Shown: positions 31,353 through 35,357 of the stretch, piece after piece
Layout: each line of letters starts with the position of its first letter
How positions within the stretch are numbered: the stretch's first letter is position 1
Source: Rhodobacterales bacterium
GTDB lineage: Bacteria; Pseudomonadota; Alphaproteobacteria; Rhodobacterales; Rhodobacteraceae
Assembly: GCA_002747035.1 (NCBI GenBank)
Contig: PDRZ01000026.1
Coordinates: 1-64,000 of the forward strand
Length of the DNA: 64,000 nucleotides
Reading direction: 5' to 3'
The notes under the pieces: model-generated
What the model was told of the DNA's origin: nothing
The model's input: only the letters and a program-made list of their open reading frames with translations
Database searches by the model: none
Position numbers and translations under genes: made by a program

Positions 31353-31465
31353 AAAACGTTCGACCTTTGACCTGAGACAGGGAAAAGGGCGAACCCAGCG
31401 CGACATTTATGTGTTTCGCGCGTCCTGCCAAAACCCGTGAGTCAGGTTTTTGGCAGGACGCTTTA
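31353..31465. repeat. palindromic repeat mosaic, copy B (modules X and Y)
   Basis: Module X (31353-31400) has imperfect arms GTTCGACCTTT and AAAAGGGCGAAC around CCTGAGACAGG. Module Y follows from 31404 to 31465 with arms at 31420 and 31445; one arm has four A against five T in the other, so one base bulges. It lies between the convergent genes pgi and xth. The terminal TTA (31463-31465) serves as the stop codon of the minus-strand xth gene, as in copy A. Confidence 0.85.
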
Positions 31466-32242
31466 GTTGTCCAGCGTGATCCAGACAGGCACATGATCGG
31501 ACGGCTTTTCCCGGCCCCGGATTTCCTTGTCGATTCCGCAATCGATCATCAGGTCCGCGCATTGCGGGCTAAGCAGGAAATGGTCGATACGGATGCCGTC
31601 GTTGCGGGTCCAGGCACCCGCCTGATAATCCCAGAACGTATAGGTTTCCGGGGCAGGGGTGTGGGCGCGGATCGCTTCGGTCCACCCCTGTGCCAACAAT
31701 CGGCGAAAGGCGGCGCGGCTTTCCGGGCGGGCCAGCGCGTCTTCCTGCCACGCCTCGGGGCGGGCGGCATCCTCATCCTGCGGAATGATATTGTAATCCC
31801 CGGCCATCAAAACCGGTTCTTCGCCCGCCAACAGGTTTGCGGCATGCGCCTGTAGGCGCGCCATCCAGGCAAGTTTGTAGTCATATTTTGGCCCGGGCAC
31901 CGGGTTGCCGTTGGGCAGGTAAAGCCCGCAGAGCCGCACCGGATGCTTGCCGATTACCGTCGCTTCGATCCAGCGGGCCTGTTCATCGCTGTCATCGCCG
32001 GGCAGACCCCGAGAGATGTCTTCCAGCGGCAGTTTCGACAGGATCGCCACGCCATTGAAGGATTTCTGGCCGTGGGTTTCCACCTGGTATCCCATGTCCT
32101 CGAAATGGGCGCGGGGAAAGGTGTCATCGGTCGATTTGATTTCCTGAAGCAGGGCTACATCAGGGGCGGCTTCGTTCAACCAATCCGTCAAAGCCGTGAT
32201 CCGCGCCTTGATCCCATTGATGTTGAAGGTTGCGATTTTCAT
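31463..32242 (-). CDS. xth: exodeoxyribonuclease III
   Basis: Mg2+-dependent AP endonuclease/3'-5' exonuclease of base-excision repair, EEP family. The 259-residue protein begins MKIATFNINGIKARI, with the metal-binding LLQEIK, the catalytic MAGDYNIIPQDEDAARPE (Asp and Asn), and RNDGIRIDHFLLS and KPSDHVPVWI (Asp-His pair). The start is ATG at 32242; the longer track to 32371 is not supported. The stop codon TAA is supplied by the last bases of repeat copy B. Confidence 0.95.
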   Translation of the reverse strand: MKIATFNINGIKARITALTDWLNEAAPDVALLQEIKSTDDTFPRAHFEDMGYQVETHGQKSFNGVAILSKLPLEDISRGLPGDDSDEQARWIEATVIGKHPVRLCGLYLPNGNPVPGPKYDYKLAWMARLQAHAANLLAGEEPVLMAGDYNIIPQDEDAARPEAWQEDALARPESRAAFRRLLAQGWTEAIRAHTPAPETYTFWDYQAGAWTRNDGIRIDHFLLSPQCADLMIDCGIDKEIRGREKPSDHVPVWITLDN

Positions 32243-32594
32243 GCCTGTTTCCCCCGGAGTCGCCGCGACTTCTTCTGGGGTTGGTTTGCGGCAGCACTGT
32301 CCAAAGATCAAGTGTGCCCCGGAGAATCGCGCGAGGGAGTCGCATGTGATTCGCCGGTGCAATACGGCCATATCCTGTGGATAACTCTCAATATCACTCT
32401 ACCTATGGTAATATCAAAAAAATTTTCTGATTTGAGATTTGGAGTCACTAATTCATATAAAACAACTAGTTCAGTATAAAACTTAAACTGAAAACTCGCG
32501 TCATATTGCCCGCAATCCGGTCTTATCCCTCTATTCAAATACCGTTAAACGTGCATTCATTTTCCATGCACAAACACCAAAGGGAGAATGAAAA
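32243..32594 (+). other. AT-rich promoter region of the repeat-protein gene
   Basis: About 350 bases with no gene I can support. From 32380 the DNA is much more AT-rich than anything around it. It carries a sigma70-like promoter (annotated), an inverted repeat TTCAGT/ACTGAA at 32470-32492 and a GTGCAT/ATGCAC repeat at 32551-32571, just before the ribosome site. The two inverted repeats are operator-like. This composition shift marks the boundary of the three-gene unit. Confidence 0.5.
32432..32461 (+). promoter_or_regulatory. candidate sigma70 promoter of the 21-residue-repeat unit
   Basis: TTGAGA at 32432-32437 and TATAAA at 32456-32461 are separated by 18 bases, close to consensus. A TTCAGT/ACTGAA palindrome starts 8 bases downstream, in the position of an operator. 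Transcription would start near 32468. Confidence 0.45.
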
Positions 32595-32957
32595 ATGATT
32601 GCACTGAAGAAAAATCAAACTGCGACCGAAGCCCGGATCCTGTCGGGGGACGCCAATGATCTGCACCGGGGAGAAGGGACCATGATGTTCACATCCGGTG
32701 CCGCGCCTTGCGCCGACAGCTCGCTGTTTGACGGAGAGGCGGTTGCGCTGTTCACGTCGGGGGCCGCCCCGGTTTTGAGCGGCGATGCCGGAACCGGTGA
32801 AGCTGTCGCGCTGTTCACCTCGGGCGCGGGTCCGGTGGCCATCGCCAGCGCCGCGGCGGGCGAAGCGGTGGAACTGTTTACCTCGGGGGCGGGTCCCGTG
32901 ACCGACGCTACGGCAAGCACGGGTGTGGCCACGGGGCTGTTCACCTCGGGGGCCTGA
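32595..32957 (+). CDS. 120-residue protein of exact 21-residue repeats (possible precursor peptide)
   Basis: I do not recognise it. After a 25-residue leader (MIALKKNQTATEARILSGDA...), four units of exactly 21 residues follow, then an 11-residue last unit at the stop. The consensus is GEAVxLFTSGA[AG]PV plus a variable seven-residue spacer. FTSGA is spelled with five different synonymous codon sets in the five copies, so the motif is kept by selection on protein, not by recent copying. There is no signal peptide, no membrane helix and only one Cys (unit 1). Gene start: AGGGAG 8 bases before the ATG. Two genes of unknown and transport function follow within 65 bases, which suggests a unit. A leader plus repeated cores is the shape of a multi-core precursor peptide, but a structural repeat protein is an alternative. 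Confidence 0.75.
   Translation: MIALKKNQTATEARILSGDANDLHRGEGTMMFTSGAAPCADSSLFDGEAVALFTSGAAPVLSGDAGTGEAVALFTSGAGPVAIASAAAGEAVELFTSGAGPVTDATASTGVATGLFTSGA
32670..32954 (+). repeat. 63-bp coding repeats of the FTSGA protein
   Basis: Units at 32670-32732, 32733-32795, 32796-32858 and 32859-32921, then a partial unit 32922-32954 ending at the stop. Unit length is constant at 63 bases. The segment GEAVALFTSGA is shared by units 2 and 3 exactly at the protein level. Silent differences between units are frequent. Confidence 0.9.
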
Positions 32958-33019
32958 GGCCTTTCTTACCGGTCCCGGGATAGGCGGTTCCACAACTCTT
33001 GCATGAGGGAGATATGCAC

Positions 33020-34105
33020 ATGTCAAATGTCATCAAGTTGAACATCCTGTCCCGGCACCCGGAACCACGGGCGCGCCACGCCGCGCTTTTGTCTTGTTTT
33101 GCCCGGCACCGGCAAGCGGAAGACAATGTGTTCTGGCTCAAGGAAAATGCCGAACTGTTGAACATTCTGGAATGCACGGGAGCCTCTCTTGCTCCCGATG
33201 CGCTTGCCCCGTTGAGCGAATTCTACGAGACTCTGGAAAACCGGTTGGCGTTCTTTCCCCAATACTATCGGTTCCTGTTGTCGATCTGTCTGGATATGGA
33301 AGACCTCGGATATCCGGGTAACAAAGGCGAGATGGCGGTGAACTGGGCCTGTCGTCAGGGCCTTGCCGGGGCCGAATTATCCGATCTGCAGCGGGCCGAA
33401 GCCCGGCGGTTGATGCTGCGCCGGGGGCGGGACCCGATGGCGCAGGATCCCGGGCTGGATGACCGCCTGCGCGGATTTACCGAACACTCTGACACCTTCG
33501 CCATGCCGAACAAGAAGGCGGCTTACGAGTTGACCCATATCGTGTTTTACCTCAGCGAATATGGCCGCGAGGACCCTGAATTGGGACCGGGCGCGCGCCG
33601 CAGCCTTGGCTATGTGGGCACGCTGGCCTTTCTGGATCAGGACGCCGACCTGCTGGCCGAGGTTTGTGTCGCCATGGGGTTTGCGGGGATTGAAATCCCC
33701 GATCAGTGGGAAAAATGGCTGGCCCGGGTCACCCAGGCCTTTGACCTGCGCGCAACGCCGCAGGCCGGGCACGACCATTACCACGAATATCTCGTCTGTA
33801 ATTGGGCGATGATCCGGCGCGGGACGCCCGGGTTTGAACATGCTTTGCGAAAAGAGGCGCTGAGCTTTCGCCGTCCGGCCATGCCCACGGGTCCTTTGCG
33901 TCAGATCTCCGAGCTTCTGTTTCATCTGGAGGCAGACCGGCGGGAAGACTGGCAGGTGATGAAACCCATCGTGGAACAGCGGCTGGATCTGCCGGCCATG
34001 GATGTGCTGCACAGTGCCGAACGGGCCGTGCCGGATTTCGATCGGTTTTTCGCGGGATTCAGCCGTGCCGCGCCCCTGCGGGAGCAGACGGAGAGGTTGG
34101 CATGA
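33020..34105 (+). CDS. 361-residue protein of unknown function downstream of the repeat protein
   Basis: I do not recognise a function; it may fall in a roseobacter domain-of-unknown-function family (possibly the one listed as DUF6902), which I have not checked. The start is the ATG at 33020 (MSNVIKLNIL), with GAGGGA 9 bases before it; a TTG at 32999 is a worse choice. The chain is predicted all-alpha with no membrane span. Two conserved-looking blocks stand out: YELTHIVFYLSEYG at 169-182 and a His-rich HDHYHEYLVCNWAM at 251-264, which could bind metal. It starts 62 bases after the repeat-protein stop and its TGA overlaps the next ATG, so it is coupled to the permease gene. Confidence 0.7.
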   Translation: MSNVIKLNILSRHPEPRARHAALLSCFARHRQAEDNVFWLKENAELLNILECTGASLAPDALAPLSEFYETLENRLAFFPQYYRFLLSICLDMEDLGYPGNKGEMAVNWACRQGLAGAELSDLQRAEARRLMLRRGRDPMAQDPGLDDRLRGFTEHSDTFAMPNKKAAYELTHIVFYLSEYGREDPELGPGARRSLGYVGTLAFLDQDADLLAEVCVAMGFAGIEIPDQWEKWLARVTQAFDLRATPQAGHDHYHEYLVCNWAMIRRGTPGFEHALRKEALSFRRPAMPTGPLRQISELLFHLEADRREDWQVMKPIVEQRLDLPAMDVLHSAERAVPDFDRFFAGFSRAAPLREQTERLA

Positions 34106-35013
34106 CCCGGTTGGCGCGGGGCGGGGTTGCGCTTGTCCTGCTTTACACGGTGTTGATCACCGGGGCGGATGCGATTGTAAAGACCCTTGGTCAAAGCTAT
34201 TCCGCCGCCCAGATGTTCGCGGTCTCTGGCTTTGTGGTCGTGCTGCTCTGTCTTGTGTGCGGGCGGGCTTCGGGGGAACCGTTGACGCTGCTGACGCTGC
34301 GGCCTGTGACGCCGGGCCTGATGGCGCTGCGGTCCGGGGCGACAGTGGTTGCGGCGGTTGCCTTTTTCGAAGCCTTCCGCCAACTGCAATTCGCCGAGGT
34401 GTTCCTGTTCGTTGGCCTGATGCCGTTGATTTCGGCCCTGATGGCGGGGCCGGTTTTGGGCGAGCGGATCAGAATGAGCAGTTGGATCGCGCTTGGCTTT
34501 GGGGGGATTGGCATGATGTGCCTGTTTCCCCAAGGGTGGAGTAGCGTGGGCTCCGGGCACCTTGTGGCCTTGCTTGCCGCGATCTCGGGCACCTATTCCA
34601 TGGTGCTGGCCCGGTTGATTTCCCGTCAGGAAACACGCGCGACGCTACAGGTGCTGTATCCCAATCTGGCGCTGGCGCTGGTCATGTTGCCGCCGCTGTT
34701 TGGTCTTTGGGTTCCGATGAGCGCGGCACATCTGGGGATTGCCGTGCTTTATGGGGTGCTTCTGTTTGCGGCGCGCCTTGTTCTGGTCCGGGCCTTGACC
34801 GATGTGCCCGCCCATGTGGCCACATCGTTGATGAAGCTGCAATTTGTCTGGATGGTGGTGATCGGCTTTGCCCTGTTTGGCGAGGTGCCGGGGCTGCATG
34901 TTTTTGCCGGTGTGATGCTTGTCATCGGGTCCGGGCTGTTGCTGGTTTACGAAGACCGGCTTGAAGGGGCATGGCGCGCGGTGGCGCGGGATTTTAGCCC
35001 GGGGCGTGGGTGA
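34102..35013 (+). CDS. DMT-superfamily (EamA) permease
   Basis: Inner-membrane permease of 303 residues with about ten transmembrane helices in two EamA halves (AVAFFEAFRQLQFAEVFLFV and the later half near ARLVLVRALTDVPAHVATSL). Family members export amino acids, nucleosides or small metabolites. The ATG overlaps the stop of the 361-residue gene (ATGA), so it is translationally coupled to it. If the unit makes a small product, this permease is the obvious exporter; DMT proteins are not known as peptide exporters, so the link is only inferred. A convergent erpA lies 20 bases downstream. Confidence 0.85.
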   Translation: MTRLARGGVALVLLYTVLITGADAIVKTLGQSYSAAQMFAVSGFVVVLLCLVCGRASGEPLTLLTLRPVTPGLMALRSGATVVAAVAFFEAFRQLQFAEVFLFVGLMPLISALMAGPVLGERIRMSSWIALGFGGIGMMCLFPQGWSSVGSGHLVALLAAISGTYSMVLARLISRQETRATLQVLYPNLALALVMLPPLFGLWVPMSAAHLGIAVLYGVLLFAARLVLVRALTDVPAHVATSLMKLQFVWMVVIGFALFGEVPGLHVFAGVMLVIGSGLLLVYEDRLEGAWRAVARDFSPGRG

Positions 35014-35033: not shown

Positions 35034-35357
35034 TTAGATCGAAAACGAGGTGCCACAGCCACAGCTGCTTGAGGCATTGGGATTGTCGATCACGAACCGT
35101 GCCCCGATCAGTTCTTCGGTGAAATCAATAGTTGCTCCGGCCAGAAAAGGCAGGCTGACCGAGTCCACGACCACCTTTTCGCCCTGACCCTCAAGCACGA
35201 GATCCTCGGCATCCGGTTCGGCCAGCGTGATTTCATATTGAAACCCGGAACATCCGCCGCCTTCGACTGCAACCCGCAGCGCCTGACCCTGATCCGCAGC
35301 GCCAATTTCGGCAAGGCGGGCAAAGGCGCGGTCGGTGACTTTCGGAGGAAGCTGCAT
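35034..35357 (-). CDS. erpA: A-type Fe-S cluster carrier protein
   Basis: Delivers iron-sulphur clusters to apo-proteins in the cytoplasm. The 107-residue protein has the three conserved cysteines in GGGCSGFQY (one) and SSCGCGTSF (two), plus the VVVDSVSLPFL strand. The start at ATG 35357 (MQLPPKVTD) has AGGAT upstream. ErpA and IscA are hard to tell apart by eye, so the symbol is tentative. It is divergent from dgt across about 90 bases. Confidence 0.88.
   Translation of the reverse strand: MQLPPKVTDRAFARLAEIGAADQGQALRVAVEGGGCSGFQYEITLAEPDAEDLVLEGQGEKVVVDSVSLPFLAGATIDFTEELIGARFVIDNPNASSSCGCGTSFSI

What the first reader, a model, noticed from the sequence alone, without database searches (positions are those of the whole stretch)
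32380..35013. Three-gene unit: 21-residue-repeat protein, unknown helical protein, DMT permease
An AT-rich promoter with operator-like palindromes drives a gene that encodes a 25-residue leader and five copies of a 21-residue unit, GEAVxLFTSGA[AG]PV plus spacer. The phase is exact and FTSGA is spelled with five different codon sets, so selection acts on the protein. A 361-residue unknown protein with YELTHIVFYLSEYG and a His-rich HDHYHEYLVCNWAM segment follows, then a coupled permease (ATGA). The layout (leader, repeated cores, possible modifying protein, exporter) resembles a multi-core precursor-peptide system, but no known maturase is present and DMT permeases are not peptide exporters, so other roles such as a stress-related repeat protein with a metabolite exporter are open. 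I know of no description of it.
Basis: partly seen in the sequence, partly recalled or inferred. Interest (0 to 1): 0.85.

Follow-up and report, generated by a model that had tools for sequence, protein, structure and literature searches.

The report
Multicore peptide gene with epimerase-like partner
Many bacteria of the Rhodobacteraceae carry, at one fixed chromosomal site, a gene for a protein made of repeated short peptides next to a gene whose distant relative is reported to flip amino acids in peptides, which looks like an undescribed two-gene pathway for making small modified peptides.

Summary
Window 32595-32957 encodes a 25-residue leader, four 21-residue units and a last 11-residue unit ending exactly in FTSGA. 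The five cores are identical in protein and spelled five ways (28 synonymous, 0 nonsynonymous of 50 codon comparisons). The 361-residue neighbour is Pfam DUF6902 and also passes the DUF6895 cut-off; one DUF6895 protein is reported as a lasso-peptide epimerase (title only). Recurring units lie within 700 nt upstream of DUF6902 in 79 of 81 sampled loci (control 1 of 453); 71 of 72 genomes hit by a repeat query carry DUF6902. Within a genome copies share one core, yet 38 core pentapeptides occur in 78 precursors. The permease was found in 61 of 80 loci. Of 10 distant DUF6895 loci, 7 have a small precursor-like gene directly before and 1 more one gene away. Best reading: a multicore RiPP-type precursor modified by an all-helical enzyme, most likely a peptide epimerase. 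Linkage and selection are shown; chemistry and function are inferred. Perfect DnaA-box sequences are concentrated at these promoters.

The parts
32376..32384 (-). Perfect DnaA-box sequence (TTATCCACA), 211 bp before the precursor start codon; the only exact one in the 64-kb window
   Evidence: enrichment among homologues; absent from 25 xth loci of genomes lacking the system. The box consensus is recalled.
32430..32594 (+). AT-rich promoter and leader region of the precursor operon, with an ACGTGCA-type element at about 32549 and a ribosome site AAGGGAG just before 32595
   Evidence: sequence; CGTGCAAGCGT-like element in homologues
32595..32957 (+). Multicore precursor: 25-aa leader, four 21-aa units and a last 11-aa unit ending in FTSGA-COOH
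33020..34105 (+). DUF6902 protein (361 aa), proposed core-modifying enzyme, predicted all-helical; candidate active-site residues H173, D210, E214, Y254, H255
34102..35013 (+). EamA/DMT permease, overlapping the DUF6902 stop codon by ATGA; frequent but dispensable partner
31463..32242 (-). xth (exodeoxyribonuclease III type), upstream boundary of the conserved site; not part of the system
   Evidence: gene name from recall of the protein family
35034..35357 (-). erpA/HesB-type iron-sulphur insertion gene, downstream boundary of the site; not part of the system
   Evidence: gene name from recall of the protein family

Best explanation
The genes are a ribosomal modified-peptide (RiPP-type) cassette. 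The 120-aa protein is a precursor carrying five identical FTSGA cores, each preceded by a recognition stretch G-[DE]-x-[VT]-x-[ML] and, if internal, followed by [AG]P. The DUF6902 protein binds these repeats and modifies each core, most likely by cofactor-independent inversion of an alpha carbon (L to D) by acid/base residues (two conserved histidines with acidic residues), as the title of a report on a member of the related DUF6895 family implies. A general protease then releases short peptides ending in F-x-S-x-x, and export is helped in most lineages by the DMT permease. Because all copies in a genome share one core while cores differ between genomes, the product probably acts as a lineage-specific signal or ligand made at high dose. 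Shown: gene pair, protein-level selection on the core, family relationship, conserved site. Inferred: modification, its type, cleavage, export, role.
For: Linkage: recurring units within 700 nt upstream on the same strand in 79 of 81 family-sample loci and 79 of 80 named loci, control 1 of 453 (the named miss, L199, has seven IMSAS units that my filter excluded). Co-occurrence over the same 295 genomes: DUF6902 in 82, repeat query in 72, 71 shared (lists compared by eye), Fisher p 3.5e-55. Selection: window cores 28 synonymous and 0 nonsynonymous differences in 50 codon comparisons, spacers 6 and 26 in 36. 38 core pentapeptides in 78 precursors, G at -6 in 96%, F at core position 1 in 72 of 78, period mostly 20 or 21; 45 of 75 precursors end exactly at the core. 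Enzyme: DUF6902 E 2.7e-152 and DUF6895 E 1.4e-20, both above cut-off; profile match to 11 DUF6895 proteins of 10 loci, probability 96.8, E 2.5e-10, with YELTH/YALTH, DLLAE/DMLGE and YHEYLV/YHTTLV aligned. Of 10 distant DUF6895 loci, 7 have a small precursor-like gene directly before and L212 one gene away, e.g. GPWYAY, GPWYIY, GPWFVL cores (judged by eye). DUF6895 epimerase: Shi et al. 2026, title in the reference list of PMC13352647.
Against: No product or modification is known. The epimerase link rests on a paper title, on a family only about 20% identical to DUF6902, and on conserved residues whose spatial arrangement I could not inspect. The cassette has no protease gene, and Pfam shows no recognition-element domain in its three proteins. 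The DMT family is not known (recalled) for peptide export, and the gene was not detected in 19 of 80 loci. Two loci (L093, L111) have DUF6902 without a detectable repeat gene. The fixed chromosomal site is unusual for an antibiotic-type RiPP. Two distant DUF6895 loci (L213, L214) show no clear precursor. Core copies in the all-locus part were selected for at most one mismatch, which biases that ratio; the window count is free of this.
Confidence: 0.58

Rival explanations
1. Multicore precursor plus DUF6902 as above, but DUF6902 installs another modification (for example a crosslink, dehydration or oxidation on Ser/Thr/Cys/Phe), not an inversion of chirality.
For: Cores are rich in Ser, Thr, Cys, Gly and Trp with an almost fixed F-x-S; no catalytic mechanism was tested; DUF6902 is only distantly related to DUF6895; no solved fold matches significantly.
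Against: No partner oxidoreductase in the window's cassette; the only reported activity that I saw for the related family is epimerisation (title).
Confidence: 0.25
2. The repeat protein is a multivalent binding partner or substrate trap and DUF6902 is a helical-repeat adaptor, not an enzyme; the pair forms an intracellular complex.
For: Foldseek's weak hits are largely armadillo and TPR peptide-binding proteins; the fixed chromosomal site suggests a housekeeping role; the permease is dispensable.
Against: Foldseek hits are not significant (best E 0.045, TM at most 0.32 in the 50 rows shown); enzyme-like near-invariant H, D, E, R, Y residues; 45 of 75 precursors end exactly at the core; precursor-like peptides of other sequence sit by DUF6895 genes.
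Confidence: 0.12
3. FxSxx-COOH type radical-SAM cyclophane system with the maturase encoded elsewhere.
For: Most cores are F-x-S-x-x and often C-terminal.
Against: None of 25 precursors matches that NCBIfam family at E 0.1; no FxsB match over cut-off in the window's genome (genome about 78% complete); cores MMCCS, LSPSC and YIAGL lack Phe.
Confidence: 0.03
4. Chance repeat or structural low-complexity protein with no link to its neighbours.
For: Repeat proteins of simple composition are common (general knowledge).
Against: Linkage, co-occurrence and codon evidence.
Confidence: 0.02

Closest known systems
DUF6895 lasso-peptide epimerase (Shi et al. 2026, ACS Catal., title only)
   Same: Same detectable protein superfamily by profile; conserved TH, D-x-x-x-E and YH motifs in the DUF6895 proteins compared here (not that protein itself); works on a ribosomal precursor.
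   Different: DUF6902 is a separate Pfam family, found here in one bacterial family only; the proposed substrate is a repeat precursor, and no lasso genes were noticed beside it.
MslH peptide epimerase of MS-271 (PMC10406935, abstract and outline seen)
   Same: Would perform the same reaction by His/Asp acid/base chemistry on a ribosomal precursor.
   Different: MslH has a calcineurin-like fold; DUF6902 is predicted all-helical.
Multicore RiPP precursors such as those of cyanobactins or dikaritins (recalled)
   Same: Leader followed by tandem cores between recognition sequences.
   Different: The cassette's only enzyme-like gene is DUF6902; core sequences differ (recalled).
FxSxx-COOH / FxsB system (recalled; NCBIfam TIGR04269 tested)
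   Same: C-terminal F-x-S-x-x.
   Different: No family match of 25 precursors, no FxsB over cut-off in this genome, tandem cores.

Membership tests
Pfam DUF6902 | Score above Pfam gathering cut-off over the full profile | tested here: met
   507.2 bits against cut-off 27, profile 1-351 of 351
DUF6895 peptide-epimerase family | Score above Pfam gathering cut-off | tested here: met
   74.3 bits against 23.8, residues 24-242
DUF6895 peptide-epimerase family | TH, D-x-x-x-E and YH residues conserved in the DUF6895 proteins compared | tested here: met
   A1 (41 sequences) and A2 (11 sequences) align at these motifs; that they are catalytic is inferred
DUF6895 peptide-epimerase family | Epimerase activity | not testable with these tools
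   needs expression and chirality analysis
RiPP (general) | Precursor-like gene (leader, core) next to a dedicated enzyme-like gene | tested here: met
   79 of 81 loci; leader and unit consensus; leader and core roles are inferred
RiPP (general) | Post-translational modification and proteolytic release | not testable with these tools
   no mass spectrometry; no protease gene in the cassette
Lasso peptides | Lasso cyclase and leader protease beside the precursor | tested here: inconclusive
   neighbours in the sampled loci are mostly xth, DMT, erpA and dgt; no lasso-specific search was made
FxSxx-COOH / FxsB | FxsB radical-SAM maturase in the genome | tested here: not met
   one sub-cut-off match, 21 bits against 370; genome about 78% complete
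MslH-type epimerase | Calcineurin-like fold | tested here: not met
   predicted all-helical, pLDDT 94.5; no such hit in the 50 Foldseek rows shown
Chromosomal replication origin (because of the DnaA boxes) | GC-skew sign switch at the site | tested here: not met
   no switch in the window nor in the three samples nearest the locus in G140 (20 samples of 20 kb in all)

The most novel reading that the evidence does not exclude
A minimal two-gene class of ribosomal peptides, seen here in at least four phyla, defined by an all-helical, cofactor-free peptide epimerase (DUF6895/DUF6902) and a leader-plus-core precursor. In Rhodobacteraceae it became a multicore, lineage-specific (pheromone-like) peptide whose promoter carries DnaA boxes, so that peptide production is tied to DnaA, that is to replication or growth state.
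Probability: 0.3. Interest if true: 0.88.

Novelty: new variant of a known kind. Interest (0 to 1): 0.76.

Why it matters
If right, DUF6902 is a new branch of peptide-modifying enzymes with a small, simple cassette that can be tested by co-expressing two genes. The 38 different cores that go with related enzymes are a natural specificity data set for making D-residue peptides. The conserved chromosomal site, the shared change of all cores in a genome, and the DnaA boxes point to a physiological peptide of a large bacterial family rather than to an accessory antibiotic.

Tried and rejected
Replication origin: DnaA boxes suggested one; GC skew in the window keeps one sign. In G140, 20 samples (noisy: two small negative values within the mostly positive half) put the sign switches near 0 and about 1.9-2.1 Mb, while the locus is at 2.57 Mb. 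DnaA boxes belonging to xth rather than to the precursor: 25 full-length xth loci, of 30 DUF6902-negative genomes searched, hold none. FxsB system: not met. Defence system: no PADLOC match. Phage proteins: one match near chance for the precursor (E 0.93), none for DUF6902. Plasmid carriage: no DUF6902 match in 72,556 records at E 1e-5. Known family for the repeat protein: none for the window's at E 1; matches to unrelated families in one or two of 25 precursors look like chance multiplied by repeats. Solved relatives: none by sequence for DUF6902 at E 1, only E 0.7 or worse for DUF6895; no significant fold match. Literature, PMC library only: DUF6902 in 0 papers; DUF6895 in 1, in its reference list only; core strings found one unrelated paper; listings only were seen for (15 of 203 listed). 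Papers: PMC13352647 passages; PMC11002830 passages (not used); PMC10406935 abstract and outline. A fold of the precursor was wanted and not obtained.

Dropped or hand-made steps: core pentapeptides were assigned by me from the outputs. The contig-end fragment of DUF6902 in G138 and the second piece of the split gene in G180 were not used as loci. L103 was left out of the codon and copy counts; L094 and L104 were not in the automatic precursor set either, so 75 of 78. The unit filter was written after seeing the repeats; its control is 453 positions elsewhere in the family-sample loci. Of the weaker DUF6895 loci, L202-L206 were printed on one strand only, though four of these five hits lie on the other strand, and L207 was not read, so they say nothing about precursors.
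Full report
What is there. The window holds xth (reverse strand), then the repeat gene 32595-32957, the 361-residue gene 33020-34105, an EamA/DMT permease gene 34102-35013, then erpA on the reverse strand and a dGTPase-type gene (the names of the flanking genes are recalled family names). The repeat protein is 120 residues: a 25-residue leader, four 21-residue units and a truncated last unit that ends the protein at FTSGA. The spacing is exactly 63 nt. The five FTSGA copies have five codon spellings. Over all pairs of copies in the window the core shows 28 synonymous and 0 nonsynonymous codon differences in 50 comparisons, while the spacer shows 6 and 26 in 36. Selection therefore acts on the core at protein level.

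Families. The 361-residue protein is Pfam DUF6902 (E 2.7e-152) and also passes the cut-off of DUF6895 (E 1.4e-20); the permease is EamA; the repeat protein matches nothing in Pfam or NCBIfam at E 1. Twenty-five precursors of different core types give only scattered matches in one or two members. The PMC library holds no paper with the word DUF6902 and one with DUF6895: a review whose reference list cites Shi et al. [quoted passage not shown] I saw the title, not the paper.

Linkage. DUF6902 occurs in 82 of 295 genomes drawn from the window's family, each from a different genus, and in 4 of 299 genomes drawn from the phylum, all four in the same family. It was not found in 72,556 plasmid records. 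A genome-contig scan gave 359 relatives; the titles of the 80 kept name genera or groups that I take (recall) to be Rhodobacterales, three being labelled only Alphaproteobacteria. I fetched 80 further loci of the 295-genome sample; with the window they cover 81 of the 82 genomes, the last (G138) being a contig-end fragment. A motif-agnostic repeat score first showed a repeat gene upstream in almost all. A final census with a unit filter finds at least two recurring units within 700 nt upstream on the same strand in 79 of 81 loci and in 79 of 80 named loci; the same filter at 453 other positions fires once. The misses are L093, L111 (a divergent DUF6902, 28% identical) and L199; L199 does have seven IMSAS units. 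In most loci the gap is under 150 nt, but it is larger in a few (for example 343 in L041 and 492 in L107). A repeat-protein query over the same 295 genomes hits 72; 71 of them are DUF6902 genomes, and the other (G017, E 1.6e-4 inside a 1507-aa frame) looks spurious (Fisher p 3.5e-55). The 11 DUF6902 genomes not hit are G138, the two without repeats (L093, L111) and eight whose cores are mostly far from the query, such as MMCCS and LSPSC.

Site. xth lies upstream on the opposite strand in 74 of 80 sampled and 76 of 80 named loci; erpA lies downstream in 69 and 71; dgt in 69 and 70; the permease in 61 and 70 (several misses are contig ends; the two sets share some genomes). In 14 of the 19 sampled loci without a detected permease erpA follows DUF6902 at once, so the permease is dispensable. 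On a tree of 80 DUF6902 proteins presence or absence of the permease changes at least 11 times (quick tree, 34 of 77 inner branches open). In 25 DUF6902-negative genomes erpA is still within the 1.5-kb flank of xth in 20. The system thus sits at one chromosomal site and has been lost or gained there.

Core diversity. My hand assignment gives 38 different core pentapeptides in 78 precursors, most often FSSGS (16) and FTSWS (9). Position 1 is F in 72, position 3 is S, T or C in 75. The unit consensus is G-[DE]-[AG]-[VT]-[EQ]-[ML]-F-[TS]-S-[GWS]-[SLAC]-[AG]-P with period 20 (226 intervals) or 21 (182). G at -6 is 96%. 45 of 75 precursors end exactly at the core, without the [AG]P that follows other cores (P 79%), which suggests that this dipeptide matters for release (inference). 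479 identical core copies in 69 loci have 352 distinct spellings, counted per locus. Cores change at least 49 times on the tree. A close pair shows all copies changed together: L041 has eight FCSAS, L042 eight FSSGS. Codon diversity argues that selection, not only recent duplication, keeps the copies alike.

Enzyme. Across 80 DUF6902 proteins many residues are nearly fixed, among them W39, E42, Y83, E119, D122, R125, E170, H173, D210, E214, D252, Y254, H255 and R349. A set of eleven DUF6895 proteins from ten distant loci has invariant Y176, H180, G189, D219, E223, Y271 and H272, and profile comparison aligns these with the DUF6902 motifs (probability 96.8, E 2.5e-10). AlphaFold2 gives a confident, almost all-helical model with two short strands (pLDDT 94.5, pTM 0.92). 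No solved structure matches significantly by fold (best E 0.045) or by sequence. The known epimerase MslH is calcineurin-like and uses two His/Asp pairs with calcium (PMC10406935, abstract); the two histidines with acidic residues here would permit a comparable acid/base mechanism, but I could not inspect the coordinates.

Distant relatives. DUF6895 was over cut-off in 6 of 299 phylum genomes and 6 of 229 genomes of the class of G474, so it is sparse there. I read ten distant loci. In Streptomyces L212 a 62-aa gene lies one gene further up. L213 and L214 are not clear (DUF6895 membership of ten of these proteins). Several small proteins share a leader of the form L..SG[IL]......L..L and a core with GPWYAY, GPWYIY, GPWFVL or YVLAW[ED][RK]YVLVV. 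In L201 the core-like stretch occurs twice. This was judged by eye, without a control, and supports a general role of the superfamily on ribosomal precursors.

Promoter. Exact TTATCCACA boxes (the DnaA consensus, recalled) number 58 in 33 kb upstream of 76 precursors and 8 in 762 kb of the remaining sequence of these loci (at least L039's two and L041's one lie upstream of the true start as well). In 86 dereplicated 200-bp upstream regions 40 have an exact box, 10 more a one-mismatch box and 36 none, the window among the 36 because its box is 211 bp away; pairs 76 bp apart in one orientation are commonest (11 cases); shuffled regions have a box with at most one mismatch in 5.5%. The window has one exact box, at 32376-32384, the only one in 64 kb. 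The site is not an origin. DnaA control is the plain reading; another factor with the same site is not excluded.

Conclusion. Shown: a repeat precursor and DUF6902 form a nearly obligate gene pair at a conserved site, with selection on a genome-specific core. Well supported: DUF6902 is related to DUF6895, which stands beside precursor-like genes elsewhere. Inferred: modification of the cores, most likely epimerisation; release; export; a signalling role; DnaA control.

Noticed in passing
window 32376-32384; upstream regions of precursors in L032-L111 and L120-L199: Perfect DnaA-box sequences are concentrated at the precursor promoters (58 in 33 kb against 8 in 762 kb elsewhere in 76 loci), often in pairs 76 bp apart, and absent from 25 xth loci of genomes without the system.
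   Followed up: partly
window about 32549; about 40-50 bp before the precursor start in homologues: A CGTGCAAGCGT-like element recurs in about a quarter of dereplicated upstream regions (8-mers in 21 to 25 of 86); its role is unknown.
   Followed up: no
L208, L209, L210, L211, L200, L201: Small genes, several with a shared leader pattern and GPWYxY or YVLAWxxYVLVV cores, stand directly before DUF6895 genes in several phyla, with no NCBIfam match.
   Followed up: partly
L212 2833-6688 and L214: Streptomyces plasmids with two tandem DUF6895 paralogues and a serine-hydrolase-type gene; in L212 a 62-aa peptide gene and a further unknown gene precede them.
   Followed up: no
L041 and L042: Closely related DUF6902 proteins whose precursors differ in every core copy (eight FCSAS against eight FSSGS).
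   Followed up: partly
L093: DUF6902 kept at the usual site but no repeat gene detected upstream and no permease found; possible decay of the system.
   Followed up: no
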